From Clostridiales bacterium (GTDB lineage Bacteria; Bacillota; Clostridia; Oscillospirales; Oscillospiraceae), in assembly GCA_014799505.1 (NCBI GenBank), contig JAAVHV010000007.1, positions 83,798 to 131,254 on the forward strand: DNA of 47,457 bases, in the 5' to 3' direction. Positions 23,576-36,802 of this stretch are shown one piece after another; the first letter of the stretch is position 1, and each line of letters opens with the position of its first letter. The notes beneath the pieces were generated by a model. That model was not told the origin of the DNA. It worked only from the letters and a program-made list of their open reading frames with translations, and made no database searches. The translations under genes and the position numbers were made by a program.

Positions 23576-23590
23576 AAAAGCATTGTGCAG

Positions 23591-23633
23591 GGCTCCCCAT
23601 CCGCAGCGCGGATGGGGAGCCTTTTATTTTTTT
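23591..23633 (+). terminator. Glycolytic operon terminator after eno
   Basis: A perfect 14-base-pair stem (23591-23604 with 23608-23621, loop AGC) followed by TTTTATTTTTTT. No good sigma-A promoter is visible in the 60 bases between it and the next gene. Confidence 0.92.
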
Positions 23634-23695: not shown

Positions 23696-24016
23696 ATGGG
23701 TACACAGGAAAAATCAGAGGAGCAGAAAATCAGGCAGGAGCTGGTGGCCTATCTGCGCAAACTGGCGAAGTGGAAAAATAACGATGTGGTGAAGCTGGGT
23801 TTTTTGGAGCCGGAGGACGCGGACCGGGTGGATCAGCTGGATCTCACCGGGGTGGTGGAGCTGAAGCGGAATGCCAACGGCACCTTCGAGGCCAAGTTTG
23901 TGGATAAGGTGCGGGTGCTGGCCATGCTGCGGGAGCTGATGGAGGAGCGCCGGGACGGGAAGCTGAAGGACTTTTTAGATGGATTGTCCGGGCCGGGGGA
24001 CGGCGATGAGGCGTGA
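23696..24016 (+). CDS. Small terminase-like protein (first gene of head-tail cluster)
   Basis: A 106-residue charged helical protein (EEQKIRQELVAYLRKLAKWKNNDVVKLGFL, then VDKVRVLAMLRELMEER). I do not see a classical helix-turn-helix. Position directly before the large terminase, with a 4-base GTGA overlap, makes a small terminase subunit (DNA recognition for packaging) the best guess. The start ATG 23696 follows AAGGAGG by 6 bases. If the DNA-binding part is really reduced, packaging would be unspecific, as in gene transfer agents. Confidence 0.55.
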   Translation: MGTQEKSEEQKIRQELVAYLRKLAKWKNNDVVKLGFLEPEDADRVDQLDLTGVVELKRNANGTFEAKFVDKVRVLAMLRELMEERRDGKLKDFLDGLSGPGDGDEA

Positions 24017-25248
24017 GGCGGCTCCAATTTTCAGCCAAGCAGAGAAAAGTGCTGGAGTGGTGGCGGGAGGAGCGCTATGACGCCATTATCTGCGACGGGG
24101 CGGTGCGCTCCGGCAAGACCTTTGCGCTGAGCGTCTCCTTCTTCCTGTGGGCCATGACGCGCTTCCAGCGGCAGAGGTTCGGACTGTGCGCCACCTCCAT
24201 CAACGGGGCGCGGCGGAATCTGCTCACCCAGGTGCGGCCTGTGCTGGAGGGGCTGGGGTTCCGATGGGAGGAGAAGGTCAGCCGGAACGAGATCACCCTC
24301 CGGGGCGGTGGGCGGGAGAACGTGTTCTACCTCTACGGAGGAGGGGATGAGGGCAGCGCCGCCTCCATCCAGGGGGTGACGCTGGCAGGTGTGCTGCTGG
24401 ACGAGGCGGCGCTGATGCCCCGCTCCTTTGTGGAGCAGGCCTGTGCCCGGTGTTCGGTGAAGGGCGGGAGGATCTGGTTCTCCTGCAACCCTGCCGGACC
24501 GGAACACTGGTTCTATAAAGAGTGGATCTGCAAGGCGGTAGAGAAAAACGCGCTGTATCTGCGCTTTGCCATGGAGGACAACCCGGCCCTATCCCGGTCG
24601 ACCCGGGAGCGCTATGAGCGGATGTTCCGGGGCACCTTCTACCGGCGGTATGTGCTGGGGGAATGGGTGGCGGCGGAAGGGCTGGTGTACGACTTCTTTG
24701 ACGAGGATACCATGCAAACGGCTCCAGAGGGGCCGTTCACCAGGTGGCGGATCTCCTGCGACTATGGGACAAGAAATCCTGCTTCTTTTGGCCTGTGGGG
24801 CGAAAAGGACAGAATCTGGTACAGAGTGGCGGAATATTACTACGACGCCCGGGCGGAGGGACGGCAGAAAACCGACGGGGAGTATGTGAGCGATTTAACC
24901 CGATTGGCGGGGGGACGGTGCATTGAAACGGTCATCGTGGACCCTTCGGCGGCCAGCTTTATCGAGGCACTGAGAAGAGAGGGCTGGACGGTTCAAAAGG
25001 CGGACAACCGGGTGCTGGAGGGGATCCGGCGGACGGCGGAGGCGCTGAAATCCGGCAGGATCGTCATCTGCAAGGGGTGCGAGGCGGCGGCCAGGGAGTT
25101 TTCCATGTACTGCTGGGAGGATGACGGAACCAAAGACCGGGTGAGGAAGGAAAACGACCACGCCATGGACGACATCCGCTACTTTGTGATGAGCCTGGAC
25201 AGCTGCGGCGGAAGCGCGGCCAGGTTTGTGGAGAGAAAGGCGTTTTGA
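24013..25248 (+). CDS. Phage terminase large subunit (PBSX/XtmB-like)
   Basis: A 411-residue DNA-packaging motor. The ATPase has Walker A GAVRSGKT (residues 29-36) and Walker B GVLLDE (127-132), coupling motif FSCNPAGPEHW. The RNase H-like nuclease keeps its acidic residues: CDYGTRNP (Asp251), VIVDPSA (Asp311) and HAMDDIRYF (Asp387/388). All catalytic positions are intact, so the enzyme should still cut and pump DNA. The start GTG at 24013 overlaps the previous stop. Confidence 0.92.
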   Translation: MRRLQFSAKQRKVLEWWREERYDAIICDGAVRSGKTFALSVSFFLWAMTRFQRQRFGLCATSINGARRNLLTQVRPVLEGLGFRWEEKVSRNEITLRGGGRENVFYLYGGGDEGSAASIQGVTLAGVLLDEAALMPRSFVEQACARCSVKGGRIWFSCNPAGPEHWFYKEWICKAVEKNALYLRFAMEDNPALSRSTRERYERMFRGTFYRRYVLGEWVAAEGLVYDFFDEDTMQTAPEGPFTRWRISCDYGTRNPASFGLWGEKDRIWYRVAEYYYDARAEGRQKTDGEYVSDLTRLAGGRCIETVIVDPSAASFIEALRREGWTVQKADNRVLEGIRRTAEALKSGRIVICKGCEAAAREFSMYCWEDDGTKDRVRKENDHAMDDIRYFVMSLDSCGGSAARFVERKAF

Positions 25249-25306
25249 GAGAGAAATACCTCGACAGAGGATTTCTATATACCACATGAATGAGAGGAGA
25301 ATGAAC

Positions 25307-25654
25307 ATGGACATTTGTTTCGAGGGCGTAGGCCAGGTGGCCGCTACCTTTCAGGTGAACGGCGAGGTGCTGCCCGGTATGGCGGTGGCGCTTACCGGCA
25401 GCGGCACGGTGGGGCTGGGCGCTGACGGCGGCCTGCCCTGCGGCGTGGTGCTGGGCGGCACGCGCGGCGGCGCGGCGGCGGTGCAGATCGGCGGCGCGGT
25501 CAGGGCGGCATATACCGGCACCGCCCCCAAGGCGGGCTGGCAGGGGCTGGCCCTGGACGGCAAGGGCGGCGTCAAGACCGCGGCCACGGGCGGACTGAAC
25601 TGCCTGGTGCTGGCGGTGGACGAGGACGAGAAGTCCGTCGTCATCAAACTGTAA
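25307..25654 (+). CDS. Possible capsid decoration protein
   Basis: A 115-residue Gly/Ala/Val-rich beta protein (FQVNGEVLPGMAVALTGSGTVGLGADG, AVQIGGAVRAAYTG, KAGWQGLALDGKGGVKTAATGG). Such short beta-barrel proteins directly before the major capsid gene are often head decoration (cement) proteins. No specific family motif is recognised. ATG 25307 is chosen over 25301 from the AGGAG spacing. It lies 13 bases before the capsid gene. Confidence 0.45.
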   Translation: MDICFEGVGQVAATFQVNGEVLPGMAVALTGSGTVGLGADGGLPCGVVLGGTRGGAAAVQIGGAVRAAYTGTAPKAGWQGLALDGKGGVKTAATGGLNCLVLAVDEDEKSVVIKL

Positions 25655-25667
25655 GGAGGAACTATTT

Positions 25668-26678
25668 ATGGCGCAGAGATTTGACAATTTGAAGCTGGAA
25701 AAGGGGATGTACCACGAGGCGGGCAAGTCCTTTACCCAGGTGCTGGAAAAGCTGGATCCCAGCGAGCAGTACCGGGGCACCGCCCTGGAGGGGCTGGACG
25801 CCTACCAGCGGCAGCTCAAGCGGTTCGACATCCGGGTGAAGGGCGCGGGCTCCGACCTGGTGGACAAGTTCTTCTCCACCAGCCAGTCGGCGGTGCTGTT
25901 CCCCGAGTACATTGCCAGGGCTGTGAAGGTGGGCATGGAGGAGGCCAACATCCTGCCCGACATCACCGCCACCGAGACCCTCATCGAAGGCATGGACTAC
26001 CGCTCCATCACCTCCGTGCCCGAGGACGAGAAACAGCTCAAGCAGGTGGCCGAGGGCGTGGCTATCCCCCAGACCACTGTGCGCACCCGGGACAGCCTGG
26101 TGAAGCTCCACAAGCGAGGCAGGATGCTGGTGGCCTCCTACGAGGCCATCCGGTTCCAGAAGCTGGACCTGTTCTCCGTCACCCTGAGGCAGATCGGCGC
26201 GCAGATCGGCCGGATGCATCTGGAGGACGCGATCCAGGTCATTTTGAACGGCGACGGCAACGATAACGCCGCTCAGGTCAGCGCTGTGGAGACGGCGGGT
26301 ATGCTGACCTATGAGGATCTGCTGGCCTTCTGGAATGAGTTCGAGCCCTATCAGCTCAACACCCTGCTGGTGGGCGCCGACACCATGCCCAAGCTGCTGG
26401 GCATGAGCCAGATGCAGGATGCCGCCGCCGGGCTGGACTTCCACGGCACCGGCAAGCTCATCACCCCCATGGGCGCCAAAGTGCTGCGCACCTCCGCCGT
26501 GCCCCAGGGCAAGATCATCGGCCTGGACAAGAACTACGCCCTGGAGATGGTCAAGGCCGGCGACGTGATGGTGGAATACGACAAGATCATCGACCGCCAG
26601 TTGGAGCGGGCCGCCATCACCACCATCTCCGGCTACGCCAAAATCTTTGAGGACGCCAGCCGGGTGCTGACCGTCTGA
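25668..26678 (+). CDS. Major capsid protein, HK97 fold
   Basis: A 336-residue coat protein. After a short helical N-terminus come the E-loop/P-domain regions (GMDYRSITSVPEDEKQLKQVAEGVAIPQTTV, the long spine helix MLVASYEAIRFQKLDLFSVTLRQIGAQIGRMHLEDAIQVILNG) and an A-domain (LNTLLVGADTMPKLLG, KLITPMGAKVLRTSAVPQGKIIGLDKNYALEMV). This pattern is that of HK97-type capsids of PBSX-like phages. No long scaffolding delta domain is seen at the N-terminus. Oddly the gene comes before portal and protease, not after them. Confidence 0.82.
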   Translation: MAQRFDNLKLEKGMYHEAGKSFTQVLEKLDPSEQYRGTALEGLDAYQRQLKRFDIRVKGAGSDLVDKFFSTSQSAVLFPEYIARAVKVGMEEANILPDITATETLIEGMDYRSITSVPEDEKQLKQVAEGVAIPQTTVRTRDSLVKLHKRGRMLVASYEAIRFQKLDLFSVTLRQIGAQIGRMHLEDAIQVILNGDGNDNAAQVSAVETAGMLTYEDLLAFWNEFEPYQLNTLLVGADTMPKLLGMSQMQDAAAGLDFHGTGKLITPMGAKVLRTSAVPQGKIIGLDKNYALEMVKAGDVMVEYDKIIDRQLERAAITTISGYAKIFEDASRVLTV

Positions 26679-27859
26679 TGAGCGGGAAAAAACGAAACAC
26701 GGAGCGGGGGGCGGCGGCTGCCGCCGCCCAACCCGGGGAGATGGCAGCTGCCGCCGCCCAGCTCCGGGACACGGGCCGGCACCCGTTCACGCAGCTGGAC
26801 GGGTATGTGCCCCTCCATCACGGGGAGATCGCGCTGTACCGGGCTATCCGGGAGGCGGTGCCCGTGGTGGACGCCGCCATCTGTAAGCTGGTGCGGCTGT
26901 GCGGCGGGGTGGCGGTGGCCTGCCGGGACAAACGGGCCCAGGAGGGGCTGGATCGGTTTCTGCGCACCGTGCCCGTGGGTCGGGGACAGCGGGGCATTCA
27001 AGCTTTTTTGGATCAGTATCTGGACTCTATGATTACCTGCGGCCGGGCGGTGGGTGAAATCGTCCCCAGCCGGGCCGGACGGGATATTGCTGCCCTGCTG
27101 TGTGCCGACGTGGGCCGGGTGGAAATCAAAGAGGGGGAAAGCCCTCTGGACTTCGCCCTGTGTGCCCGGGACAGTGATGGGACTGTGCGGGAGCTTCCCC
27201 GGCAGGAACTGCTGCTGTTCACCCCCTTCCAGCCGGAGACCTGCGCGCCCTATGGGGTGTCCATGCTGCGCTCCATGCCCTTTTTGGCAGAGATCTTTGT
27301 GAAAATCTTTGAGGCCATGGGCAAGAACTGGGAACGGATGGGCAACGTGCGATTTACCGTGGTGTGCAAGGGTGAAAACGGCGCGATGGCCCAGGAGCGG
27401 TGCAATGCGGTGGCAAAGGAGTGGGGCGCCGCCATGCAGGCGGGCCGGGACGGCGCGGTGCGGGACTTCGTGTGCGCCGGAGATGTGGAGATCCGCACCA
27501 TCGGGGCGGACAACCAGGTGCTGGACAGCGAGGTGCCCGTGCGGCAGATTTTGGAGCAGTTGGTGGCCAAAACGGGTATCCCGCCCTTCCTGCTGGGGCT
27601 GAGCTGGTCGTCCACCGAGCGGATGAGTTCACAGCAGGCCGACATCATGACCAGCGAGATCGCCGCCATCCGGCGGGGACTGGAACCGGTGGTGGAGCGG
27701 ATTTGCGAGTTCTGGCTGCGGCTGCGGGGGTTTGACGACCATGTGGACATCAACTGGACGGACGTGAATCTTCAGGACGAGGAGTCGGAGGCCAGAGCGG
27801 CGCTGTACCGGGCCCAGGCCAGGGCCATGGAGGAGGAGAATGGAAATGCAGATCAGTAA
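26678..27859 (+). CDS. Phage portal protein
   Basis: A 393-residue portal. After an Ala-rich unstructured start it shows portal-family segments: GEIALYRAIREAVPVVDAAICKLVRLCGGV, a stem-like middle, NWERMGNVRFTVVCKG, EVPVRQILEQLVAKTGIPPFLLGLSWSSTERMSSQQADIMTSEIAAIRRGLEPVVERI. Twelve copies would form the ring through which DNA is pumped by the terminase and to which the tail attaches. Its ATG overlaps the capsid stop (TGATG). Confidence 0.85.
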   Translation: MSGKKRNTERGAAAAAAQPGEMAAAAAQLRDTGRHPFTQLDGYVPLHHGEIALYRAIREAVPVVDAAICKLVRLCGGVAVACRDKRAQEGLDRFLRTVPVGRGQRGIQAFLDQYLDSMITCGRAVGEIVPSRAGRDIAALLCADVGRVEIKEGESPLDFALCARDSDGTVRELPRQELLLFTPFQPETCAPYGVSMLRSMPFLAEIFVKIFEAMGKNWERMGNVRFTVVCKGENGAMAQERCNAVAKEWGAAMQAGRDGAVRDFVCAGDVEIRTIGADNQVLDSEVPVRQILEQLVAKTGIPPFLLGLSWSSTERMSSQQADIMTSEIAAIRRGLEPVVERICEFWLRLRGFDDHVDINWTDVNLQDEESEARAALYRAQARAMEEENGNADQ

Positions 27860-28715
27860 AGACGCGGCGGTGAAGGCCATCGGCGTCCCCGAGGAGGGGG
27901 AGCTGGCACTCATTAACCGCCTCACCCGGCGGGAACTGATGGCGGACGAGGTATATACCTTTGCTCTGCGGCTGTGCGACAACGACATCGACCGGGACTT
28001 TGAGCGGTTTGACGACAGCACGCTGGATCAGCTGGCCCCCATGTTCGTGGGGGTGTCCGGGGTGTTCGACCACCAATGGAGCGCCAAAGGGCAGACCGCC
28101 CGCATTTACCGCGCCGAGGTGGTGGGCGGGGACGGCACCGTCACCACGGACGGGCGGCCCTACCGCTATCTCAAGGGATGGGCCTACCTGATGCGCACCG
28201 ACGAGAATGCCGCCCTCATCGCCGAGATCGACGGCGGCATCAAGCGGGAGGTCAGCGTGGGCTGCGCGGTGGAGAAGGTTTTGTGCTCTGTTTGCGGCGG
28301 CGAGCTGGGCGACTGCCCCCATGAGAAGGGGGAGGAGTACGACGGACAGGTATGCCACGGCGTGCTCACCGGGGCCACAGACGCCTACGAGTGGTCTTTC
28401 GTGGCGGTGCCCGCCCAGCGGAAGGCCGGGGTCATCAAAAGCGCGGGCCGGCGCATGGAGGACGAGGCCCGGCTGGGGCGGAAGTACCTCAAGGGCCTGC
28501 GCCGCGAGATGGTGCGGCTGGCGGGCATCGCCGAGCCGGACGCGGAACACCGGCTGCTGGAAAAGGTGGCGGACCGGCTGGACGAGGAGGAGCTGCTGGG
28601 GCTCATCAAGCTGTACCGGGGAAAGGCGGACAAGCTGCTGGTCGGCGGCGTGCAGCTGAGCTACGGCGAGCAGGCCGTTCCGCCTGAGATCGCCGATGGG
28701 GCCTTCCTCATTTAG
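27846..28715 (+). CDS. Prohead maturation protease (Ser-His type) with zinc-knuckle insert
   Basis: A 289-residue protein (291 if the ATG at 27840 is used). The N-terminal 190 residues match phage prohead proteases: the catalytic His in VFDHQWSAKG (near 76) and Ser in IKREVSVGCA (near 137). Just after the Ser is a Cys/His cluster CSVCGGELGDCPH and then CH about ten residues on, which could bind zinc. The C-terminal about 90 residues are charged helices that may act as scaffold. It overlaps the portal gene by 14 bases; GGAGG favours the second ATG. Confidence 0.78.
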   Translation: MQISKDAAVKAIGVPEEGELALINRLTRRELMADEVYTFALRLCDNDIDRDFERFDDSTLDQLAPMFVGVSGVFDHQWSAKGQTARIYRAEVVGGDGTVTTDGRPYRYLKGWAYLMRTDENAALIAEIDGGIKREVSVGCAVEKVLCSVCGGELGDCPHEKGEEYDGQVCHGVLTGATDAYEWSFVAVPAQRKAGVIKSAGRRMEDEARLGRKYLKGLRREMVRLAGIAEPDAEHRLLEKVADRLDEEELLGLIKLYRGKADKLLVGGVQLSYGEQAVPPEIADGAFLI

Positions 28716-28726
28716 GGGGGCGGACG

Positions 28727-29077
28727 ATGATAGAACAGGTGATGGAGCTGGCGCAGGCGCTGGGAGGCGCGGGGCAGGGCGAGGACGTGCTGCGGACGCT
28801 GTGCGTCAACGCCTGCCAAATGCTGGACCGGCGGCTGAAAGACGGCCTGACGCCGGAGGACTGCGAGGGGGCCTACCCCCTGGCGGCGGCGTGGCTGGCC
28901 ATGGACTGGCTGCGGGGCGGGCAGGGACTGGAAGGGATCACGTCCCTGTCCGCCGGGGACATCTCCGTACGGCGGGACGGGGCGTCGGACGGCGGAAAAC
29001 TGTCTGAGCGGGCCATGGAGCTGATGGCCCCGTTTCTCAGAGACGACGGGTTTGTGTTTCAGGGGGTGAGAGGTTGA
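28727..29077 (+). CDS. Head-tail connector (adaptor) protein
   Basis: A 116-residue helical protein (MIEQVMELAQALGGAGQGEDVLRTLCVNACQMLDRRLKDG, then YPLAAAWLAMDWLRGGQGLEGITSLSAGDISVRRDG) of the size and pattern of gp6-like/YqbG-like adaptors that sit under the portal. It is preceded by GGGGGG and overlaps the next gene by 4 bases. Confidence 0.65.
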   Translation: MIEQVMELAQALGGAGQGEDVLRTLCVNACQMLDRRLKDGLTPEDCEGAYPLAAAWLAMDWLRGGQGLEGITSLSAGDISVRRDGASDGGKLSERAMELMAPFLRDDGFVFQGVRG

Positions 29078-29409
29078 TCGAGGCGTTTGAGTGGGTCATC
29101 AAGACCTATGGGCAGGAGATGGTGTGCCGCCGCGAGGACGGCACGGAGGCAGGCCGGGGCATGGCCATCGTCCAGCCCATGACGAAGGCGGATTGGCAGT
29201 ACACCGCCGGGGCGCTGGGCAGCTACTCCCAGGACAAATTCCTGGGATTGGCGGAGCCGGAAATGCCCCTGGACAAAGTGGGGCCCGGCGGCTGGCTGGA
29301 GTGGGGCGGCGGACGCTATGAGGTGATGACCATCCGGCCCATCTGGGTGGGCGGACAGGTCACCCACCTGTGGCTGGCCCTGCGGCCCTGCCCGGAGAAC
29401 GCGCCATGA
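29074..29409 (+). CDS. Head closure (stopper) protein
   Basis: A 111-residue beta-rich protein with TTG start at 29074. GMAIVQPMTKADWQYTAGALGSYSQDKFLGLAEPEMPLDKV and WGGGRYEVMTIRPIWVGGQVTHLWLALRP resemble the YqbH/XkdH-type stoppers that plug the portal after packaging. The call depends mainly on order between the adaptor and tail-terminator genes. Confidence 0.6.
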   Translation: MIEAFEWVIKTYGQEMVCRREDGTEAGRGMAIVQPMTKADWQYTAGALGSYSQDKFLGLAEPEMPLDKVGPGGWLEWGGGRYEVMTIRPIWVGGQVTHLWLALRPCPENAP

Positions 29410-29906
29410 ACGGGGCGCTGAACGCCCTGCGGGAGGCGGTGGCCCAGCAGCTGCGCCAGGCGGGGGTGAACGCCGTCACCGCCATGGAAAGCCAGCGGGC
29501 CAGCCGGTGGAGAGAGGCTGTGGCAGCGGTGTCGCTGATGAGGGTGGTGTGCGCCCCCGGCGGGTTCAAGGACTACCTGGGGATGCGCCAAGAGCCTAAC
29601 GGAGCCGAGCGGGAGCTCTATGGCCGGGAAGTGGAGCTGACTTTGGCGCTGGACATCTACGCCCCCAGGGACGGAGGCGAGGGCGCCTGCCAGCAGGCGG
29701 CGGAGACGGCAACCGAGACGCTGGTGTGCCAGGGGGCGGCGGGGCTGAATGCCCTGGAGATCCAGACGGGCCGGGTGGAGTTCCTGGAGAGTACGGGGCT
29801 GTACCGCTTGCAGGTCAGCTGCCGGTGCAAGGCGTGGCTGGTGGCCGCGGCGGAAAGCGGCGGCGTGGCCTTTGTGGACTTTGAGGTGAAAGGAAAGATG
29901 AAATGA
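29406..29906 (+). CDS. Tail terminator / tail completion protein
   Basis: A 166-residue protein: an N-terminal helix (ALNALREAVAQQLRQAGVNAVTAME), then beta strands (VELTLALDIYAPRDGG, LYRLQVSCRCKAWLV). Position directly before the sheath gene and length fit XkdJ-like tail terminators, which cap the tube at the head side. ATG 29406 overlaps the preceding stop; ATGA overlap with the next gene too. Confidence 0.55.
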   Translation: MNGALNALREAVAQQLRQAGVNAVTAMESQRASRWREAVAAVSLMRVVCAPGGFKDYLGMRQEPNGAERELYGREVELTLALDIYAPRDGGEGACQQAAETATETLVCQGAAGLNALEIQTGRVEFLESTGLYRLQVSCRCKAWLVAAAESGGVAFVDFEVKGKMK

Positions 29907-30937
29907 GCATAGCGACCAATCATGAGCGGCCGGGAGTGTATTCCTCCTATGAGACATCCAGCCTGACCGCCGCCTCGGTGGGGGGCAGCAAGGTGGCGGT
30001 GGTGGCCGCCGCGCAGGGAGAAAGTGAACAGAGCGTCTATCAGTGGACCAGCTACAGCAAGGCGGAGGGGGACGTGGGCGACTGCGCGCTGAGCCGTCTG
30101 GCCCAGCTGGCCATCCGCAACGGCGCGGGCGTAGTATACGGCGTGCCCGCTGGGGAGGACTATGCCGCCGCCTTTGCCACGGTGGCCGCCATTGAGGACG
30201 CGGCGGTGGTGGTGTGCGACAGCACAGACCTGGCCGTGCAGCAGGCGCTGAAAACCATGGTGCAGGAGTGTTCCGCTGCCCGGAAGGAGCGCATCGCCGT
30301 GGTGGGCGGCGCGGCCGGCGAGACGGCGGCGCAGCTGGTGAAGCGGGCCGAGGGGCTCAACTGCGAGCGGATGGTGCTGGTGGCCCCCGGCGCGGGGGAC
30401 GGCTCCGGCGGCGTCTCCTGCGCCGCGGCAGTGGCGGGAGCCATCGCGGGGAACACCGATCCGGCGCTGCCCCTGGGCGGCGCACAGCTCTATGGGCTGG
30501 ACGGGCTGGAGTGCAGCTACGACGACAACGACATTGACCTGCTGATTCGGGGCGGCGTGACGCCGCTGGAGATGCTGGCGGGATCGTACTACGTGGTGCG
30601 GGGCGTCACCACCAGGACCACCACCGGCGGCGCGGAGGACGCCACATGGCGGGAGCTGACCACCATTCTGGTGGTGGACGAGGTGATCCCCGGTCTGCGC
30701 AATGCCCTGCGCTCCAAGTTCAGCCGCGCGAAAAACACCACCCAGACCCGGGGGGCTATCCGCTCCCAGACGGTGATGGAGCTGGAAAAGCGGGTGAGCC
30801 GGGAGATCATCGACAGCTACGAGGACGTGACGGTGTCCGCCCTGGAGGACGACCCCACGGTATGCCTGGTGGAGTTCGCCTTCACCGTGGCCCACGGGCT
30901 GAACCAGATCTGGCTGTCGGCCCATATTACGGTATAG
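29903..30937 (+). CDS. Contractile tail sheath protein
   Basis: A 344-residue sheath protein, short for the family (often 390-490). It opens RPGVYSSYETSS, the usual sheath start (RPGVY), and ends with the conserved core domain: SREIIDSYEDVTVSALEDDPTVCLVEFAFTVAHGLNQIWLSAHITV. Its presence shows that the particle has a contractile (myovirus-type) tail. The middle region is Ala/Gly-rich. A long G+C-rich spacer follows before the tube gene. Confidence 0.88.
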   Translation: MSIATNHERPGVYSSYETSSLTAASVGGSKVAVVAAAQGESEQSVYQWTSYSKAEGDVGDCALSRLAQLAIRNGAGVVYGVPAGEDYAAAFATVAAIEDAAVVVCDSTDLAVQQALKTMVQECSAARKERIAVVGGAAGETAAQLVKRAEGLNCERMVLVAPGAGDGSGGVSCAAAVAGAIAGNTDPALPLGGAQLYGLDGLECSYDDNDIDLLIRGGVTPLEMLAGSYYVVRGVTTRTTTGGAEDATWRELTTILVVDEVIPGLRNALRSKFSRAKNTTQTRGAIRSQTVMELEKRVSREIIDSYEDVTVSALEDDPTVCLVEFAFTVAHGLNQIWLSAHITV

Positions 30938-31134
30938 CGCCCGAGCCGTCGTGAGCAGCGCGGATGGACTGGAGCCGTGGGCGGGCCGTAGGCCCGCTTA
31001 GGCCTGGGGCGGCAAAGCCGCCTAACGGCGAGGGCGAGAGCCCAAGACCCACGCAGTGGGACTGGGTCTTGCCCGAGTCGGAGGGAAGCCGCGCGTCGCG
31101 AACAGGCGAGGCGTGAATAGAAGGAGGCAATGAA
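30938..31134 (+). repeat. Hairpin-rich spacer between sheath and tube genes
   Basis: A 197-base gap inside an otherwise tightly packed cluster. It contains GCGGGCC/GGCCCGC, GGCGGC/GCCGCC and CAAGACCCA/TGGGTCTTG stems, and the block CGAGTCGGAGGGAAGCCG (31074-31091) almost identical to one between tpiA and gpmI. It looks like the same family of dispersed extragenic repeats. The AAGGAGG for the tube gene follows it. Confidence 0.55.
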
Positions 31135-31548
31135 ATGAGTACAAGTATCAACGCGGGGCTGAGCGCCGCGGGGTTCCCCACCAGCTCGGACATCTGGCTG
31201 GAGCTGGACGGGCAGAAGGTGGCGGTGGTGCAGAGCTACAGCTGTAAGGCCACCCGCAGCTCCTACTCGGTGGAGGCCTTCGGCGAGGAGGAGCCGGTGG
31301 CCACGGTGCAGGGACCCCAGAGTTATGTGATCCAGCTCACCAGGCTGTACGCCACCGACCAGGCCATCGCTGACGGGCTGGACTTTTACAGCCTGAAAAA
31401 CTTCTCCCTGGTCATCTGCAAGCCGGATCGCAAGGTGATCTACTCCGACTGCCAGTGGAGCGAGATTCAGGAGGACGCCAAGCTGGGCCAGACGGTGGCG
31501 GAAAAGCTCACCCTTGTGGCCAAGAGCCGGATGGAGATGGCGGCGTAA
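31135..31548 (+). CDS. Tail tube protein
   Basis: A 137-residue beta-rich protein of XkdM type (DIWLELDGQKVAVVQSYSCKATRSSYSVEAFGEEEPVATVQGPQSYVIQLTRLY, DFYSLKNFSLVICKPDRKVIYSDCQWSEI). Tubes of this type stack as hexamers inside the sheath. Strong AAGGAGG 8 bases before the ATG. The order sheath-tube-chaperone is standard for contractile tails. Confidence 0.8.
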   Translation: MSTSINAGLSAAGFPTSSDIWLELDGQKVAVVQSYSCKATRSSYSVEAFGEEEPVATVQGPQSYVIQLTRLYATDQAIADGLDFYSLKNFSLVICKPDRKVIYSDCQWSEIQEDAKLGQTVAEKLTLVAKSRMEMAA

Positions 31549-31968
31549 ATGGACAGGGCATTTTGGGCCGGACCGGATCGAGTAAAGGTGAAGGAAGGGA
31601 CGCTGCGGCTGCTGTCCGCCCGGGAGGTGCTGGAGGCCCGCCGGGAGGGCGACGCTCTGGCCCAGGATGGCAAGGAGCGGGCGCTGTGCCGCAACGCCTG
31701 CCTCATCGCCCGGGCGCTGGAACGCGGTGGAAAGCCGGTATTTGAGAGCGGCCAGGCGGCGCTGGACGGCCTGCGGGTGGAGGACGTCGCACGGCTGGCT
31801 GACGCCTGGGCGGCGTTTAACCGGGAATACAACCCCTCTCCTTTGGACGGGGAAGAGGAGATCTCGGCGCGAAAAAAAGCCTGGAGCACGCGCGTTATGA
31901 GCGCCTTCAGTGGCGCGTGCTCCGTCTGTTTGGCGCTCTGCCCAGCGAAGATCGGGCGAAACAGATGA
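31549..31968 (+). CDS. Tail assembly chaperone, short form (gpG-like)
   Basis: A 139-residue zero-frame product: KEGTLRLLSAREVLEARREGDALAQDGKERALCRNACLIARALE is typical of XkdN-like chaperones. Codons around residue 108-110 read CGA AAA AAA, a slippery run. Ribosomes that do not shift continue to the stop at 31968 and add 29 residues that look like shadow sequence (STRVMSAFSGACSVCLALCP). The start follows the tube stop directly, so it is probably translationally coupled. Confidence 0.78.
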   Translation: MDRAFWAGPDRVKVKEGTLRLLSAREVLEARREGDALAQDGKERALCRNACLIARALERGGKPVFESGQAALDGLRVEDVARLADAWAAFNREYNPSPLDGEEEISARKKAWSTRVMSAFSGACSVCLALCPAKIGRNR

Positions 31969-32174
31969 CCGACCGGGATTACCTGTGGTGCGCCCTCAAC
32001 CTGGCGCTGGATCAGGAGGAGGAGCTGGCAAGGCTGTGTCCCGACTGCCGGGAGCGGGCGGAGGCGGAACCCTGCCCGGTGTGCGGTGCGCCCAGGGAGA
32101 GCTGGTCGGTGAACAGAGGGTTCGACTGGGCCCGGTATCAGGAGCTGAAGGGGGGCGGGGACGGTGGTCGATAG
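31549..32174 (+). CDS. Tail assembly chaperone, frameshifted long form (gpGT-like)
   Basis: Join of 31549-31878 and 31878-32174 by a -1 ribosomal frameshift, giving 110 + 98 = 208 residues. The shifted part reads SLEHARYERLQWRVLRLFGALP, then DRDYLWCALNLALDQEEELARLCPDC and CPVCGA, a sensible domain with a two-pair Cys cluster. The slippery heptamer A-AAA-AAA and an 11-base-pair stem just downstream are given separately. Such G/GT pairs load the tape measure in most tailed phages. Confidence 0.82.
31872..31923 (+). promoter_or_regulatory. Programmed -1 frameshift signal
   Basis: The heptamer AAAAAAA (31872-31878) stands in frame A-AAA-AAA. Four bases later a perfect 11-base-pair stem begins: GGAGCACGCGC (31883-31893) with GCGCGTGCTCC (31913-31923), 19-base loop. 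An alternative inner pair GCGCC/GGCGC (31901-31905 with 31912-31916) is possible. Confidence 0.88.
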
Positions 32175-32766
32175 GCTGGAGGAGTTGCTGGCACAGATGA
32201 CGGATGAGGATGACGAGGAGCAGGAGGACGCGCTGGCGCTGGCGGCGGAACAGGTGCTTCCCACTGCCCCCGCGCCCGGAAGTGACAGCCGGACGGAGGG
32301 TTCAGAGGATTTGGGGAACCCGCAAGAGCTGGAGCAGGGGGAGCGTAAGGCGGCTTCGATTCCAATGGAGACTGGGGAGCTGTGGGAGAGAATCCCCCGT
32401 ATCGGTGGGGAGCAGACGCCGGAGGATGACAGGCTGGCGTCAATGTATGAAAACCAGCCGACGGCATTGCGCGCCCCGAGGGCCGGGAATGGTCAGACAG
32501 CAGGAGGACTGGGGCCGGCCGCGGTGACGGCGGATGCGGCGGCTGCTCCAGCCCCCGGCGCGGCGGCGGATCGGGGGCTGGAGGAGCTGTACCGCCGGAC
32601 CGCCCAGGCCAGCCGCCCGGCGGCCCAGAGCCTGCCTGTGGAGCAGGCGGGACGGACGCGATCCGCCGAAGAGCCGGGACGCACCGCCGCCCTCACCGTG
32701 GACGAGCTGGATCGGGCGGTGCGCCGGGACAGCCGGCGGTATGACGGGGGCATTACTATTTTCTGA
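32164..32766 (+). CDS. Short acidic, low-complexity protein in the tape-measure position
   Basis: A 200-residue protein from GTG 32164, overlapping the chaperone end by 11 bases. It is rich in Glu, Asp, Ala and Pro (LEELLAQMTDEDDEEQEDALALAAEQ, then AAAPAPGAAADRGLEELYRRTAQ), with no hydrophobic helices. Contractile-tail clusters have a tape measure of 500 to over 1000 residues here. Either this is a minimal tape measure, a remnant, or an unrelated chaperone. I do not recognise the family. Confidence 0.5.
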   Translation: MVDRLEELLAQMTDEDDEEQEDALALAAEQVLPTAPAPGSDSRTEGSEDLGNPQELEQGERKAASIPMETGELWERIPRIGGEQTPEDDRLASMYENQPTALRAPRAGNGQTAGGLGPAAVTADAAAAPAPGAAADRGLEELYRRTAQASRPAAQSLPVEQAGRTRSAEEPGRTAALTVDELDRAVRRDSRRYDGGITIF

Positions 32767-32783
32767 GAAGAGGAGGGAAGCGC

Positions 32784-33353
32784 ATGATCCTTTCCCCCAT
32801 GCGGTTTAAAAATTTTGTGTGGCCCCACAACCCCAGGGTGTATTCCATTACCTTTGAGCGGAAGCTGGCGGCGCATAAGATCCCGTTCGGCAGGCACCGG
32901 ATCCAGAGCCTGGGCCAGACGCGCCGGGTACTGAAGGGAGAGGGGGAGTTCGTGGGTGAAGGGGCCTACGACACCTTCAAGGCGCTGGCCAGCGTGTTCT
33001 ATGAGGAGACGCCGGGGGTGCTGGTTCACCCGGTATGGATGACCACCACGGCGTGGTTCGCTGGACTGGAGCTGCGTCAGGCACCCCGGCGGGACTATGT
33101 GGCCTACTCCTTCGAATTCTGGGAGGTTATTGACGGCACCGGGGACACAAAGCTGACCGTCCGGGCCGTGGAGACTTCCGATCAGAACGCCGGGGACGAA
33201 CAGGCGGGCGAATGGTACACCGTGGTCAGGGGCGATACCCTGTGGGCACTGGCCCGACGGTATGGAGTGGCGCTGAACCGGATCATCGAGCTGAACCCGG
33301 GCATACGCAACCCCAATCTCATCTATCCGGGACAGAAGGTGAGGATAAAATGA
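32784..33353 (+). CDS. LysM-domain baseplate/tail protein (XkdP-like)
   Basis: A 189-residue protein. Residues 1-125 are a tail domain (FVWPHNPRVYSITFERKLAAHKIPFGRH, LRQAPRRDYVAYSFEFWEV). Residues about 144-189 are a LysM domain (YTVVRGDTLWALARRYGVALNRIIELNPGIRNPNLIYPGQKVRIK), which binds N-acetylglucosamine in peptidoglycan. In PBSX the same arrangement is XkdP. It would connect tube end and baseplate. AGGAGGG lies 8 bases before the ATG. Confidence 0.85.
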   Translation: MILSPMRFKNFVWPHNPRVYSITFERKLAAHKIPFGRHRIQSLGQTRRVLKGEGEFVGEGAYDTFKALASVFYEETPGVLVHPVWMTTTAWFAGLELRQAPRRDYVAYSFEFWEVIDGTGDTKLTVRAVETSDQNAGDEQAGEWYTVVRGDTLWALARRYGVALNRIIELNPGIRNPNLIYPGQKVRIK

Positions 33354-34303
33354 TCCAGTGCTGGGTGAGGCTGGGCAACGGCGGAGAGCTGGAGCTGCCC
33401 ACCGCCGTCAGCTGGAAATTCTGCTACGGCACCGACACCCCCTGCGACAGCTTTTTCCTGCGGTGCCTGTGGGAGCGGGGGCAGGAAAAGCAGCTGTCCG
33501 CCGCCTGCCGCTTTTTTGCCGAATGGGAGGGCCAGCGGGTGTTCACCGGGGTGGTGGATGAATTCGCGGTCATCTGCGGCAGGGACGGGCTCTATCTGGA
33601 GCTGTCCGGCCGGGGGATGGCGGCTCTGCTGCTGGACAACGAGGCCATGCCCGCCGAGTACCAGCGGTGCACCCGGGCGGACATCCTCGCGGATCACGTG
33701 GATCCCTACGGCGTGGAGACGGTGGGGGGCGCGGGCCTGCCCGCCGTCAACGGTTTCACCGTAGCCAGCGGGGAGAGCGAGTGGAGCGTTGTTCGGCGGT
33801 TCGCCTGCTACTACGGCGGGATCGTGCCCCGGTTTGACCGGTACGGGCGGCTGGTGCTGGACGCCCCGGCCGATGGAGAGGAGCTGCGCGTTCGGGAGGG
33901 CGACGCGGTGACCGGCTGGGAATACCGGGAGGAGCGCCACGGAGTGCTCAGCCAGGTGGCGGTGCGGCGGCGGACCACCTGGGGCACCCAGTGGGTGTCC
34001 GACCCCGAATTTCTGGCCGAGGGCGGGCGCGCCCGGAAGATCATCACGGTGCCCAACACCACCGGCACCGCCGCCATGCGGTACAGCGCGGACTATCAGC
34101 TCAGAGCCGCCCGCCGGGAGCGGGTGCGGATGAAGATCACCGTGGCCGGAGCGTTTTTGGCCTGGCCCGGGGAGCTGGTGTCGGTGGAGCTGGACGGCTT
34201 TGGTGCCAACGGACAGTACCGGGCGGCCCAGACCGAGGTGTCCTGCGGCAGCGAGGGGCTGACCACCACCCTGGTGCTGGGTGAAGTGGATGCCCTTATT
34301 TAG
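33350..34303 (+). CDS. Baseplate hub protein (XkdQ / gpD-like)
   Basis: A 317-residue protein from ATG 33350 (ATGA overlap). CWVRLGNGGELELPTAVSWKFCYGTDTPCDSFFLRC, GVVDEFAVICGRDGLYLELSGRGMAALLLDNEAMPAEYQRCTRADILADHV and a C-terminal beta part (ITVAGAFLAWPGELVSVELDGFG) resemble the XkdQ family, which forms the hub between tube and spike. No lysozyme or peptidase domain is seen in it. Confidence 0.75.
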   Translation: MIQCWVRLGNGGELELPTAVSWKFCYGTDTPCDSFFLRCLWERGQEKQLSAACRFFAEWEGQRVFTGVVDEFAVICGRDGLYLELSGRGMAALLLDNEAMPAEYQRCTRADILADHVDPYGVETVGGAGLPAVNGFTVASGESEWSVVRRFACYYGGIVPRFDRYGRLVLDAPADGEELRVREGDAVTGWEYREERHGVLSQVAVRRRTTWGTQWVSDPEFLAEGGRARKIITVPNTTGTAAMRYSADYQLRAARRERVRMKITVAGAFLAWPGELVSVELDGFGANGQYRAAQTEVSCGSEGLTTTLVLGEVDALI

Positions 34304-34322
34304 GAGAGTGGAGGATTGATTT

Positions 34323-34736
34323 ATGTGGCTGAGCGGACAGCAGAAGCGGCCCGCCGATGAGGGCGAGGGCCAGACCGGCATCGTCACCATGAGCGGCGGC
34401 GAGACGGCGGTGCTGCTGGACAGGGAGCGGCGGGGGCTGGACATCTATTCCCCGGGGGGCTATACCTGGACGCCCAGGGTGGGCCAGCGGGTGCTGGTCA
34501 TCCAGGGCAGAGGGGAGATCCCCTGCGTGGTGGGAGCCCTGCAGGGCGGCGTGCCCGACCGGGTGGGCATACAGGCGAAGAGCCTTGCCCTGAGCGGGCA
34601 GGCGGTGAGTGTTGCCGCCCAGAGGGGCGCTACGGTCAGTGGAAGTCAGGTGAATTTGAATGGCCAGGTGTACGTCAACGGCGAGAAGCTGGAGGATCTG
34701 ATCCGGCGGATCGTGGCCAGTATGCTGGGGGGTTGA
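34323..34736 (+). CDS. Baseplate spike-like protein (gpV/gp45-like)
   Basis: A 137-residue protein with an OB-fold start (GQTGIVTMSGGETAVLLDRERRGLDIYSPGGYTWTPRVGQRVLVIQGRGEIPCVVGAL) and then a regular beta stretch (KSLALSGQAVSVAAQRGATVSGSQVNLNGQVYVNGEKL), like short gpV-type central spikes. It would form the membrane- or wall-piercing tip. It occupies the XkdR place in PBSX order. Confidence 0.65.
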   Translation: MWLSGQQKRPADEGEGQTGIVTMSGGETAVLLDRERRGLDIYSPGGYTWTPRVGQRVLVIQGRGEIPCVVGALQGGVPDRVGIQAKSLALSGQAVSVAAQRGATVSGSQVNLNGQVYVNGEKLEDLIRRIVASMLGG

Positions 34737-34738
34737 GG

Positions 34739-35089
34739 ATGAGCCTGCTGCTGAAAAACAGGGATTACACCGCCGACGGGAACGGCGGGGTGACCGTTGT
34801 CAAGGACGGGGATGAACTGATCTGCGAGGTGCTGTTCCGGCTCACCGCCCGGCGGGGGAGCTTTCCCTTCCTGCCCGAGCTGGGCAGCCGGATGCACCGG
34901 CTGCGCAGAGAGAAGCCCTCCGCCTGGGACAGCCTGGCCAAACAGTACGCCGTGGAGGCGCTGGCCGATCTCCCGGACGCGGTGGTGACCGGAGCCCAGG
35001 TGAGTCAGGAGGGGGACCGGCTGGCGGTGGCTGTGGAGCTGCTGTGGCAGGGCGACAGCCTGTGGGTGACGGCGCAGTTGGAGGAGTGA
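34739..35089 (+). CDS. Baseplate wedge protein (gp25/XkdS-like)
   Basis: A 116-residue protein: LICEVLFRLTARRGSFPFLPELGSRMHRL and AVEALADLPDAVVTGAQVSQEGDRLAVAVELLWQGDSLWVTAQLEE match the gp25/DUF2634-type wedge that nucleates sheath assembly. ATG 34739 is 3 bases after the spike stop; a TTG at 34733 is an alternative. Confidence 0.75.
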   Translation: MSLLLKNRDYTADGNGGVTVVKDGDELICEVLFRLTARRGSFPFLPELGSRMHRLRREKPSAWDSLAKQYAVEALADLPDAVVTGAQVSQEGDRLAVAVELLWQGDSLWVTAQLEE

Positions 35090-35093
35090 GACA

Positions 35094-36167
35094 TTGATCA
35101 CATTAGAAGAAATCTATCAGGCTCTGGCCGCGGAGTTCCAGGCCCGGACGAGCCAGACCGCCGGGGCCAGCAGCGAGCTGGCGGTGCGGTTTTACGCCGT
35201 GGCCGCCCAGATATACAGCCTGTATGTCCAGGCGGAGTGGACCCGTCGGCAGTGCTTCCCACAGACCGCGGAGGGGGAGGAGCTGGATAAGCACGCCCGG
35301 CTTCGGGGCGTGACCCGGCGGGCGGCCACCCGGTCAGTGGGGACGGTGCGGTTCTACGTAGACCAGGAACGGGAGACGGACACCGAGGTTCCGGCGGGCA
35401 CCGTGTGCATGACCGCGGGCGGGGTGCGCTTTACCACCGACATAGACGGGGTAGTGCCCGCCGGGGAGCTGTACTGTGAAGTGCCTGTGACAGCGGTGGA
35501 TGCCGGAGCGGCGGGCAATGTGGGACAGGGCGCCATCATATATATGGCCCTTCCTCCCACGGGCATCGCGGCCTGCGCCAATCCCTCCTTCCTGTCCAGC
35601 GGACAGGACCAGGAGGGGGATCAGGAGCTGCGGGAGCGGGTGCTGGCAACCTTCCAGCGGCTGGCCAACGGTGCCAACAACGCCTTCTACGAGCAGGCGG
35701 CCATGTCCTTTGACGGGGTGGCGGCGGTGACGGTGCTGCCCCGGAACCGGGGAGTGGGCACTGTGGATCTGGTGCCCGCCGCCTTGGAGGGGGTGCCGGA
35801 TCAGGAACTGCTGGATATCTTGCAGGAGCATTTTGACCGGGTGCGGGAGATCGCCTGCGACGTGAAGGTGATCCCCCCCACGGTGGAGACAGTGGATGTA
35901 TCCGTCAGGTTGTGGGCCAAGGAGGATCGAAGCTTTGACGCCGTGGCCGAGGCGGTGCGGCAGCGGCTGGAGGGCTGGTTCAACGGAGAGCGGCTGGGCA
36001 AAGCCCTGCCCCGCGCCCAGCTCATCTCCCTCATCTACGGCGTGGACGGGGTGGCCAACTGCCAGCTCGAAAAACCGACGGTGGATATTCCGCAGAGCAA
36101 GACCGTTTTGCCGGTGTTGGGGGAGCTGACCATCACCGACGGCGCGGGCGGAGGTGGCGGCGCGTGA
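35094..36167 (+). CDS. Baseplate J-like protein (gpJ/XkdT)
   Basis: A 357-residue wedge protein with TTG start. ITLEEIYQALAAEFQARTSQTAGASSELAVRFYAVAAQIYSLY, GEELDKHARLRGVTRR, GVRFTTDIDGVVPAGELYCEVPVTAVDAGAAGNVGQGAI and DQELRERVLATFQRLANGANNAFYEQAAMSFDGVAAVTVLP are classic baseplate J segments. It ends in a Gly run (GGGGGA) and overlaps the gpI gene by 4 bases. Confidence 0.88.
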   Translation: MITLEEIYQALAAEFQARTSQTAGASSELAVRFYAVAAQIYSLYVQAEWTRRQCFPQTAEGEELDKHARLRGVTRRAATRSVGTVRFYVDQERETDTEVPAGTVCMTAGGVRFTTDIDGVVPAGELYCEVPVTAVDAGAAGNVGQGAIIYMALPPTGIAACANPSFLSSGQDQEGDQELRERVLATFQRLANGANNAFYEQAAMSFDGVAAVTVLPRNRGVGTVDLVPAALEGVPDQELLDILQEHFDRVREIACDVKVIPPTVETVDVSVRLWAKEDRSFDAVAEAVRQRLEGWFNGERLGKALPRAQLISLIYGVDGVANCQLEKPTVDIPQSKTVLPVLGELTITDGAGGGGGA

Positions 36168-36760
36168 CACTGAGGTTTGAGGACTATTTGGTATCGCTGC
36201 TCCGGCCCCTGGGCGTGTACGATCTGCGCACAGGCACCATCAACCGGGGCGAGCTGGCCGCCTACGGCGCGCGGTTGGACGGGGCGGAAGCGGAGCTGGA
36301 CCACACCGCCCGGGAGATGAACCTGACCACGGCGGAGGACTTCGGCCTGGAGCGGATCGAGGCGCTGCTACCCTACCGTCCGGTGTGTGTGACGGCACAG
36401 CAGCGGCGGGAGGCCTTGGCCGCCCTGCTGCGCATCAGCGGCGACAGCTTTACGCCGGAGGCCATCAACGATACTCTGCGGGGCTGCGGCCTCAACGCCA
36501 GGGCGGAGGAGACGGGCAGGCCGGGCTATGTGGACGTGTATTTTCCCGATGTGGCGGGAATACCGGAGGGGTTTGACCAACTGCGGGCCATCATCGAGGA
36601 GATCCTGCCCAGCCACCTGGGGATCACCTACGTGTTCTGGTACAACACCTGGGCCATGGTGGCCGAGTGGCACCCCACCTTTGGGGACGCGGCCGCGTCC
36701 GGCCTGAGCTGGTATGGGCTGGCCATTGAGAACGACGGCTTTGGAAAAGATGAGGAGTGA
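36164..36760 (+). CDS. Phage tail protein gpI/XkdU-like (DUF2313)
   Basis: A 198-residue protein from GTG 36164. LRPLGVYDLRTGTINRGELAAYGARLDGAEAELDHTAREMNLTTAEDFGLERIEALLPYRP is the usual DUF2313 start. In phages it connects the baseplate to tail fibres. Here it is the last gene: a terminator follows 4 bases later, and no fibre, holin or lysin gene is seen. Confidence 0.82.
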   Translation: MTLRFEDYLVSLLRPLGVYDLRTGTINRGELAAYGARLDGAEAELDHTAREMNLTTAEDFGLERIEALLPYRPVCVTAQQRREALAALLRISGDSFTPEAINDTLRGCGLNARAEETGRPGYVDVYFPDVAGIPEGFDQLRAIIEEILPSHLGITYVFWYNTWAMVAEWHPTFGDAAASGLSWYGLAIENDGFGKDEE

Positions 36761-36763: not shown

Positions 36764-36802
36764 TTACCGGCCCCACAGGTGTGGGGCCGGTAAATTTTTT
36801 TG
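36764..36802 (+). terminator. Terminator of the phage-type cluster
   Basis: A perfect 13-base-pair stem (36764-36776 with 36781-36793, loop AGGT) followed by ATTTTTTTG. It closes the cluster right after the last tail gene. Confidence 0.92.

What the first reader, a model, noticed from the sequence alone, without database searches (positions are those of the whole stretch)
23696..36760. Compact head-plus-contractile-tail cluster without phage life-cycle genes: candidate gene-transfer-agent or PBSX-like particle
Thirteen kilobases hold a complete set for a DNA-filled head and contractile tail, with intact terminase motifs, but no integrase, repressor, replication, fibre, holin or lysin gene. 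The cluster is one co-directional unit between eno and mreB, has host-like G+C, and shows no att repeats. Tail gene order matches PBSX xkdK to xkdU. The size is like the Rhodobacter gene transfer agent cluster. A domesticated particle that packages host DNA would explain the intact genes and missing phage functions. Seen: gene set and absences. Inferred: function.
Basis: partly seen in the sequence, partly recalled or inferred. Interest (0 to 1): 0.9.

Follow-up and report, generated by a model that had tools for sequence, protein, structure and literature searches.

The report
Ancient host-kept phage-particle gene cluster
A gut bacterium keeps, next to its cell-shape gene mreB, a complete kit for a small phage-like particle that its relatives have inherited and kept in working order for a very long time, most likely to pass pieces of bacterial DNA between cells.

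Summary
Confirmed: 23,696-36,760 holds 19 co-directional genes for a head and contractile tail, between terminator-like hairpins and host genes. No integrase, repressor, replication, holin or fibre gene was recognised. It is not a recent prophage remnant. All 51 genome loci with both capsid and portal are collinear. In the genus the cluster lies just upstream of mreB in 17 of 18 loci. The capsid gene occurs in 145 of 400 sampled family genomes and 72 of 394 of the order. Host and cluster distances correlate (r=0.90). Pooled dN/dS is 0.14-0.35, capsid 0.02-0.07. Clean empty sites exist in some congeners; the shared site and derived gene order favour loss.

The terminase is of the PBSX family, with its motifs invariant. 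The putative small terminase is only 106 aa. The tape-measure slot is tiny. In a second family 16 of 17 usable loci lack the sheath but keep head, motor and baseplate, so head and motor are the conserved core, which favours DNA packaging over a killing tail.

Best reading: a domesticated, PBSX-derived, gene-transfer-agent-like particle. DNA content and transfer are untested. The nearest published system in function is the Faecalibacterium GTA; homology to it was not tested.

The parts
23589..23623 (+). terminator-like hairpin after eno; upstream boundary
   Evidence: 16-pair stem followed by a T run
23696..24016 (+). g01, putative small terminase subunit, 106 aa
   Evidence: no Pfam or NCBIfam family at E<=0.05 and no PHROG (on the longer ORF); AlphaFold model (pLDDT 72.7, pTM 0.52) matches viral models named terminase small subunit at E 5.7e-5 and 1.6e-4; precedes TerL in its relatives
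24013..25248 (+). g02, large terminase, PBSX family
   Evidence: TIGR01547 1.5e-58 above cut-off, PF03237; motifs invariant in 75 sequences
25301..25654 (+). g03, small virion structural protein
   Evidence: phrog_4588 2e-19; start corrected
25668..26678 (+). g04, major capsid protein
   Evidence: PF25209 4.8e-14, phrog_3922 2.7e-109
26678..27859 (+). g05, portal
   Evidence: phrog_30703 7.7e-160; PF04860 1.7e-7, below its cut-off
27840..28715 (+). g06, at the XkdF place (after portal), function unknown
   Evidence: phrog_16951 7.9e-106, unknown function; weak NF045541 prohead protease/capsid fusion, E 0.012, far below cut-off
28727..29077 (+). g07, head-tail adaptor by position
   Evidence: weak phrog_442/477 E 0.06-0.08
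29074..29409 (+). g08, neck protein by position
   Evidence: no family; conserved place
29406..29906 (+). g09, tail completion/terminator by position
   Evidence: phrog_25177 2.5e-31, unknown function; start corrected
29903..30937 (+). g10, tail sheath
   Evidence: PF17482 1.5e-13, PF04984 3.2e-10, phrog_279 3.5e-44
30938..31134 (.). dispersed GC-rich repeat between sheath and tube genes
   Evidence: 16 matches in own genome including itself
31135..31548 (+). g11, tail tube by position
   Evidence: phrog_27038 6.4e-55, unknown function; follows the sheath
31549..31968 (+). g12, tail assembly chaperone by position, 0-frame product
   Evidence: between tube and tape-measure slot; overlaps a -1 frame; no family
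31872..31878 (+). A AAA AAA candidate slippery site for a -1 frameshift; -1 frame open to 32,174
   Evidence: same codon register in 9 of 9 loci printed
32164..32766 (+). g13, tape-measure-slot protein, 200 aa, low complexity, conserved C-terminal RD(A/S)RR(Y/F)D
   Evidence: slot 397-1617 bp in 61 loci; C-terminus in the five loci printed; dN/dS 0.44-1.10
32784..33353 (+). g14, LysM tail/baseplate protein
   Evidence: PF01476 2.9e-17, PF07157 5.6e-7; phrog_380 'endolysin' 7.7e-20, phrog_184 'baseplate hub' 6e-12
33350..34303 (+). g15, baseplate hub
   Evidence: phrog_177 1.8e-35, PF22255 1.8e-4, below cut-off; start corrected
34323..34736 (+). g16, small baseplate/spike-place protein
   Evidence: phrog_25991 2.1e-14, unknown function
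34733..35089 (+). g17, gp46-like baseplate wedge
   Evidence: PF07409 1.9e-5, below cut-off; phrog_180 3.6e-6
35094..36167 (+). g18, baseplate J
   Evidence: PF04865 2.9e-54, phrog_6 1.8e-73
36164..36760 (+). g19, gp48/XkdU-like; last gene
   Evidence: PF10076 1.6e-5, below cut-off; phrog_521 1.9e-19
36764..36793 (+). terminator-like hairpin; downstream boundary
37371..38402 (+). mreB, the fixed downstream neighbour in the genus (host gene)
   Evidence: PF06723 1.6e-137; 606-1421 bp beyond g19 in 17 of 18 loci

Best explanation
A domesticated, PBSX-derived, gene-transfer-agent-like cluster. SHOWN: one conserved 19-gene unit, inherited with the host and under purifying selection, encodes a packaging motor, portal, capsid, neck, contractile tail and baseplate, with no recognised gene for its own replication or integration. 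INFERRED: when the host switches it on, the terminase, whose putative small subunit is too short to carry the usual extra DNA-binding domain, loads headfuls of host chromosome without choosing the cluster itself. A short tail (tiny tape-measure slot, frameshifted chaperone) and baseplate are added. Lysis and receptor proteins come from elsewhere in the genome. The particles inject bacterial DNA into related cells, and the host keeps the cluster because DNA exchange or repair pays.
For: Collinearity in 51 of 51 genome loci with capsid and portal. Fixed site before mreB in 17 of 18 genus loci. Host/cluster distance correlation r=0.905 over 31 taxa, 0 of 5000 permutations as high. Head-gene tree with 26 of 26 f23 loci in one clade (98.5) and 5 of 5 f26 loci in one clade (89.4). 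Pooled dN/dS 0.144-0.347 in 8 pairs, capsid 0.02-0.07. TerL ATPase and nuclease motifs invariant in 75 sequences. Short TerS. Conserved frameshift site, 9 of 9 printed. In family f23, 16 of 17 loci with capsid and LysM lack a sheath match while head and terminase persist. Random packaging of chromosomal DNA has been reported in Oscillospiraceae without a known locus (PMC12946183, section 9 read).
Against: No particle, packaged DNA or transfer was observed. No lysis or receptor gene was found: holin family PF05105 in 17 of 42 genus genomes with no consistent relation to the cluster; fibre query 1 of 42, a fragment. 11 of 41 congeners lack a TerL match, some with a clean empty site, so the cluster is dispensable. 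255 of 400 family genomes, 139 of 245 good ones, have no capsid match. The four-gene host tree does not recover the genus as one clade (weak nodes, 36 and 61, among those that break it). The site differs between genera. One f2 locus nests inside f1 (97.7), as a transfer or a misbinned contig would. TerS rests on a moderate model, and its best structural match, 124 aa, is itself short and uncharacterised, so a short TerS may not be special to this cluster.
Confidence: 0.68

Rival explanations
1. PBSX-like bacteriocin: particles fill their heads with host DNA but do not inject it; the tail kills related strains, and selection is for killing.
For: TerL is of the PBSX family, the tail families are PBSX-like ([quoted passage not shown]
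Against: A killer would be expected to lose its head before its sheath. In f23 the reverse is seen: 16 of 17 usable loci lack a sheath match and keep capsid and terminase. The capsid is the most constrained cluster protein in the pairs compared. No immunity or receptor gene was recognised in the cluster.
Confidence: 0.17
2. A family of satellite-like or mobile prophages that share a structural module and happen to insert at favoured sites, some of them defective.
For: Empty sites in congeners, different sites in different genera and one relocated copy in G028, one f2 locus inside f1. True prophage-like relatives of the TerL exist (26 of 80 genome loci carry only the TerL).
Against: No integrase or att repeat recognised; co-divergence with the host; one copy per genome in 143 of 145 matching family genomes; identical gene order over about 50% divergence.
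Confidence: 0.08
3. A domesticated particle with another job, such as packaging DNA for storage, phage interference, or delivery of a protein cargo.
For: Function is untested; g03, g06, g13 and g16 are of unknown role; no receptor gene is known.
Against: Intact packaging motor and nuclease motifs and no recognised cargo or toxin family among the cluster proteins (one Ntox30 match of g06 at E 0.19 is chance level).
Confidence: 0.07

Closest known systems
PBSX of Bacillus subtilis (defective phage-like element)
   Same: PBSX-family large terminase (TIGR01547); contractile tail; gene order like xkdE to xkdU in the portal-first genera (PBSX order recalled); a head that PBSX fills with 13.4-kb chromosomal fragments (PMC12946183, passage seen).
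   Different: No regulatory, fibre or lysis genes recognised in the cluster; tape-measure slot of at most 329 aa (PBSX XkdO is over 1,000 aa, recalled); a 106-aa putative TerS; conserved across families of one order.
FpGTA of Faecalibacterium (Borodovich et al. 2026, PMC12946183; abstract, passages, sections 9 and 26 read)
   Same: Same order of gut bacteria; single compact head operon (10.5 kb) led by a TerS without obvious DNA-binding domain; no replication genes; other functions in a second locus.
   Different: FpGTA is podovirus-like; the cluster here has sheath, tube and baseplate in one 13-kb unit. Sequence homology could not be tested.
RcGTA of Rhodobacter capsulatus (recalled)
   Same: Domesticated, vertically inherited structural cluster of similar size; non-specific packaging is proposed here by analogy.
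   Different: RcGTA has a non-contractile tail and is in Alphaproteobacteria; no sequence comparison was made.

Membership tests
Gene transfer agent (viriform) | Phage-derived structural cluster without genes for self-replication or integration | tested here: met
   none recognised among the cluster proteins; eleven flanking proteins are host; no flanking repeat
Gene transfer agent (viriform) | Evolves with the host genome, under purifying selection | tested here: met
   with losses and site changes
Gene transfer agent (viriform) | Packages random pieces of host DNA, at best part of its own genes | not testable with these tools
   indirect only: intact motor, short TerS
Gene transfer agent (viriform) | Transfers DNA to recipient cells | not testable with these tools
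   needs a transfer assay
PBSX-type element | PBSX-family large terminase | tested here: met
   TIGR01547, 199.1 bits, cut-off 105.05
PBSX-type element | PBSX gene order up to xkdU | tested here: inconclusive
   families fit but PBSX itself was not fetched and its order is recalled; in the window genus g03+capsid precede portal+g06
PBSX-type element | Kills related strains by the tail | not testable with these tools
   needs a killing assay
Tailocin | No capsid, portal or terminase | tested here: not met
   all three present
Temperate prophage | Integrase, repressor, replication and lysis genes, att repeats | tested here: not met
   only lysis-labelled match is the LysM protein g14
FpGTA lineage | Sequence homology to FpGTA I proteins | not tested
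   FpGTA sequences not held; a recalled Faecalibacterium 16S probe matched 0 of 394 order genomes, so no Faecalibacterium genome could be recognised

The most novel reading that the evidence does not exclude
One phage capture in an ancestor of several families of this order gave a gene-transfer-agent lineage that has since co-diverged with its hosts. It began as a contractile particle. In a second family (f23) the sheath, and in some loci also the tube, were lost while head, packaging motor and baseplate stayed, giving short-tailed particles. This lineage would be the unidentified source of the random chromosomal packaging reported for gut Oscillospiraceae, and its de-tailed branch could be related to the podovirus-like FpGTA.
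Probability: 0.4. Interest if true: 0.9.

Novelty: new variant of a known kind. Interest (0 to 1): 0.74.

Why it matters
Gene transfer agents outside Alphaproteobacteria are few (PMC12946183, discussion passages). That study found random DNA packaging in Oscillospiraceae but named an operon only in Faecalibacterium. The cluster here is a specific candidate, present in about a third of sampled family genomes (145 of 400) and in named genomes such as Flavonifractor plautii ATCC 29863, Flavonifractor sp. An306 and Oscillibacter valericigenes Sjm18-20, so it can be tested directly. It would give a route of DNA exchange among common gut bacteria, and a natural series in which a contractile particle loses its tail but keeps its head. 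It also shows such clusters sitting in virus catalogues: 24 of 72 IMG/VR loci found by TerL carry the capsid and portal of this cluster, and five unannotated 'Bacteriophage sp.' records carry a 54-65% identical capsid.

Tried and rejected
Recent prophage remnant: rejected on collinearity, dN/dS, distances and trees. TerL alone as a marker: rejected, because 26 of 80 genome loci and 48 of 72 IMG/VR loci carry only the TerL among TerL, capsid, portal and g06; the capsid was used for distribution counts. A first dN/dS script gave ratios above 2 for g15 and, in some pairs, above 1 for g03; I took these for artefacts of wrong starts and redid the count on aligned codons only. Holin PF05105 as a pointer to a second locus: no consistent relation to the cluster. 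Fibre of f23: 1 of 42 genus genomes, a fragment; among the f1 loci held, one match at 2.8e-5, G065. PDB profile and fold searches of TerS gave nothing credible; the viral model library did. Rfam on the spacer before mreB: nothing credible. The RcGTA tape-measure length was sought in passages of one paper and not found.

Rows set aside: sp27, sp19 and sp37 were left out of the spacer alignment, whose output was also cut. The head-gene tree used 58 chosen loci, not all that were held. The Mantel test used the 31 genomes with both data sets; three of them (G004, G007, G013) have only 2 of the 6 cluster genes. The f23 sheath count leaves out 9 of 26 loci in which LysM was not found or not reached. 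TerS: 42 of the sequences went into the model, 53 homologues had been found.
Full report
WHAT IS THERE. The window lies on contig C7 of a 1.86-Mb genome, 65% complete. Between eno and mreB, 19 genes run in one direction from 23,696 to 36,760. Profile searches name a large terminase, a virion structural protein (g03), a capsid protein, a portal, a sheath, a LysM/DNA-circularisation-type tail protein, a baseplate hub, a gp46-like wedge, baseplate J and a gp48-like protein. g06-g09, g11-g13 and g16 are named by position; g01 by position and a structure model. g14 also matches PHROG families labelled endolysin, without a catalytic lysin domain in Pfam. Long GC-rich terminator-like hairpins stand at both ends. 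The eleven flanking proteins scanned are enolase, phosphoglycerate kinase, triosephosphate isomerase, a SpoU methylase, uridine kinase, an MBOAT protein, MreB, PadR, a HAAS/DUF4097 protein, a Mur ligase and YfhO. No direct repeat pairs the edges.

THE CLUSTER IS CONSERVED AS A UNIT. A terminase query brought 80 loci from genome records and 72 from IMG/VR. Of the 80, 54 also carry capsid, portal or g06; 51 carry both capsid and portal, and all 51 are collinear for the other genes detected (13 genes tested, g01 to g18 without the rearranged ones and g13). The other 26 carry only a related terminase among these; L039 and L041 are contig ends too short to tell, the rest look like other phages. Two arrangements of the head genes exist. 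In the window genus g03 and capsid precede portal and g06 (19 of 51 loci; TerL 71-94% identical to the window). Elsewhere portal and g06 come first (32 of 51; TerL 53-70%). The second is the usual phage order (recalled), so the first looks derived.

SITE. In the genus I could see the 3' end of the cluster in 18 loci, the window and 17 congeners. In 17 the next gene is mreB, 606-1421 bp away; in G028 the cluster lies elsewhere. Upstream neighbours vary: eno in the window and its nearest relatives, otherwise an htpG-murA-MBL-fold-rlmH stretch or another host neighbourhood (gene names read by eye). Other genera carry the cluster at other sites. In five loci (Flavonifractor AGMB03687, An306, An82, F. 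plautii, Pseudoflavonifractor P3106) the same two host gene families lie downstream; CE91-St43 shares one of them and An92 neither.

EMPTY SITES. Eleven of 41 congeners have no TerL match. All have mreB, and none shows a cluster gene in the stretch fetched upstream of it, though that stretch was too short to judge in G024 (0.3 kb) and G008 (3.2 kb). In six (G001, G005, G009, G010, G018, G020) the htpG-type neighbourhood runs straight into mreB; in two (G011, G025) the neighbourhood seen upstream of the cluster in sp29, sp30 and sp06 does. The promoter and leader before mreB are shared by carriers and most non-carriers. I favour loss, because both deep carrier lineages of the genus share the site and the derived gene order. 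The four-gene host tree puts non-carriers among carriers, but it does not recover the genus as one clade and has weak nodes there.

DISTRIBUTION. The capsid gene matches in 145 of 400 family genomes, in 106 of 245 of the good ones and in 50 of 106 genera. There is one match per genome except G198 (split over two contigs) and G465 (a full copy and a contig-end fragment); G176 is a fragment and G474 a weak hit. Over the order it matches in 72 of 394: f1 21 of 43, f23 34 of 42, f26 12 of 41, f14 2, f2 1, f7 1 and a weak one in f6 (denominators counted by hand from the genome list).

VERTICAL INHERITANCE. Host distances (pgk, tpi, gpmI, eno) and cluster distances correlate at r=0.905 over 31 taxa, with 0 of 5000 permutations as high (highest permuted r 0.56). 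Within the genus r=0.89, 23 taxa, 0 of 5000. In a tree of four head proteins over 58 chosen loci, all 26 f23 loci form a clade (98.5), all 5 f26 loci form a clade (89.4), and the two are sisters (100). f1 is not one clade under midpoint rooting, and one f2 locus lies inside it (97.7).

SELECTION. In eight close pairs the pooled dN/dS is 0.144-0.347 (13 to 19 genes). Capsid is 0.02-0.07, TerL 0.05-0.21 (7 pairs), sheath 0.10-0.28. The exception is g13, 0.44-1.10; g01, g03 and g16 reach 0.66-0.76 in single pairs. Host genes compared in the same script give 0.01-0.20. TerL stretches GAVRSGKT, DE, CNP, DYG, DP and DHAMD are invariant in 75 sequences (their names as ATPase and nuclease motifs are recalled).

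ANATOMY THAT BEARS ON MECHANISM. (a) g01 is 106 aa; 53 homologues are 95-142 aa, median 106, one over 122 (starts chosen by script). Its AlphaFold model (pLDDT 72.7, pTM 0.52) matches two viral models named terminase small subunit, of 168 and 218 aa, and, best of all, a short uncharacterised one of 124 aa; the RMSDs are large. It seems to lack an extra domain that in longer small terminases usually binds DNA (recalled); the missing part was not mapped. The FpGTA TerS also lacks an obvious DNA-binding domain (PMC12946183, section 9). (b) g12 overlaps a -1 frame; A AAA AAA sits in the same register in 9 of 9 loci printed, as in tail chaperones of tailed phages (recalled). (c) The whole stretch from the tube gene to the LysM gene, which must hold chaperone and tape measure, is 397-1617 bp, median 1210, in 61 loci; the longest ORF in it is 329 aa. 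So the tail should be very short if the tape measure sets its length. The slot protein varies but ends in RD(A/S)RR(Y/F)D in the five loci printed. (d) No fibre, holin or lysin was recognised in the cluster apart from the LysM label above, and the two searches elsewhere in the genus gave no consistent candidate.

TAIL LOSS IN A SECOND FAMILY. Of 26 f23 loci, 17 show both capsid and LysM genes. Sixteen of these have no sheath match at E 1e-3 and only 712-1661 bp between capsid and LysM; G753 has 2,993 bp, with sheath and tube. In 61 window-type loci with sheath the distance is at least 2,939 bp. A tube match remains in 4 of the 16 (L277, L297, L308, L311). A fibre-like gene is found in 14 of the 26 (one of them the query itself) and hflX in 8. 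Terminase, capsid and, in these 17, baseplate genes are the constant parts. A killing device would be expected to keep its sheath, so I favour DNA packaging as the selected function. This is an argument, not a test.

WHAT IS KNOWN. Borodovich et al. 2026 (PMC12946183; abstract, passages, sections 9 and 26 read) report random packaging of chromosomal DNA in Ruminococcaceae (17 of 25 GTA events), Oscillospiraceae (Onthomonas, 3 of 25) and Christensenellaceae (3 of 25). They characterise FpGTA in Faecalibacterium, podovirus-like, with 8.4-8.9 kb of DNA. Of four MAGs that they searched, one (Faecalibacterium) gave a strong candidate operon. My paper searches (open-licence PMC papers, listings only apart from the papers named) showed no description of this cluster. 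I cannot say whether the window genus is Onthomonas. The sheath has only two relatives among 50,697 phage records, both unannotated faecal contigs.

VERDICT. Domestication is well supported. GTA function is the likeliest reading and is untested. It is a new variant of a known kind.

Noticed in passing
36,822-37,143: Candidate non-coding RNA or leader before mreB: TTGACA-17-TACAAT promoter, conserved GAAAGGAAAAGGTGAGTCC stretch, and a 17-pair hairpin at 37,102-37,143; promoter and leader are shared by carriers and most non-carriers of the cluster; no credible Rfam match.
   Followed up: partly
30,938-31,134: Dispersed GC-rich repeat between the sheath and tube genes; 16 matches in the genome including itself.
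   Followed up: partly
20,576-20,670: The stretch before gpmI, translated, matches many dispersed short fragments in this and related genomes: a second repeat-like element of the genus.
   Followed up: no
L279 (G774, family f26): A run of about ten ORFs from a TerS-place gene to a 427-aa protein, with no LysM or baseplate match to the window: similar in ORF number and size to the published FpGTA I operon; identity of the host not established.
   Followed up: partly
L111-L134 (IMG/VR) and GenBank MT835769, MT836604, MT835952, MT835508, MT838993: Clusters of this kind sit in virus catalogues as viral contigs.
   Followed up: partly
L276, L277, L280, L281, L291, L310, L311, L312 (family f23): In eight f23 loci the cluster stands upstream of hflX, in six of them with argG and argH beyond: a second conserved chromosomal site.
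   Followed up: partly
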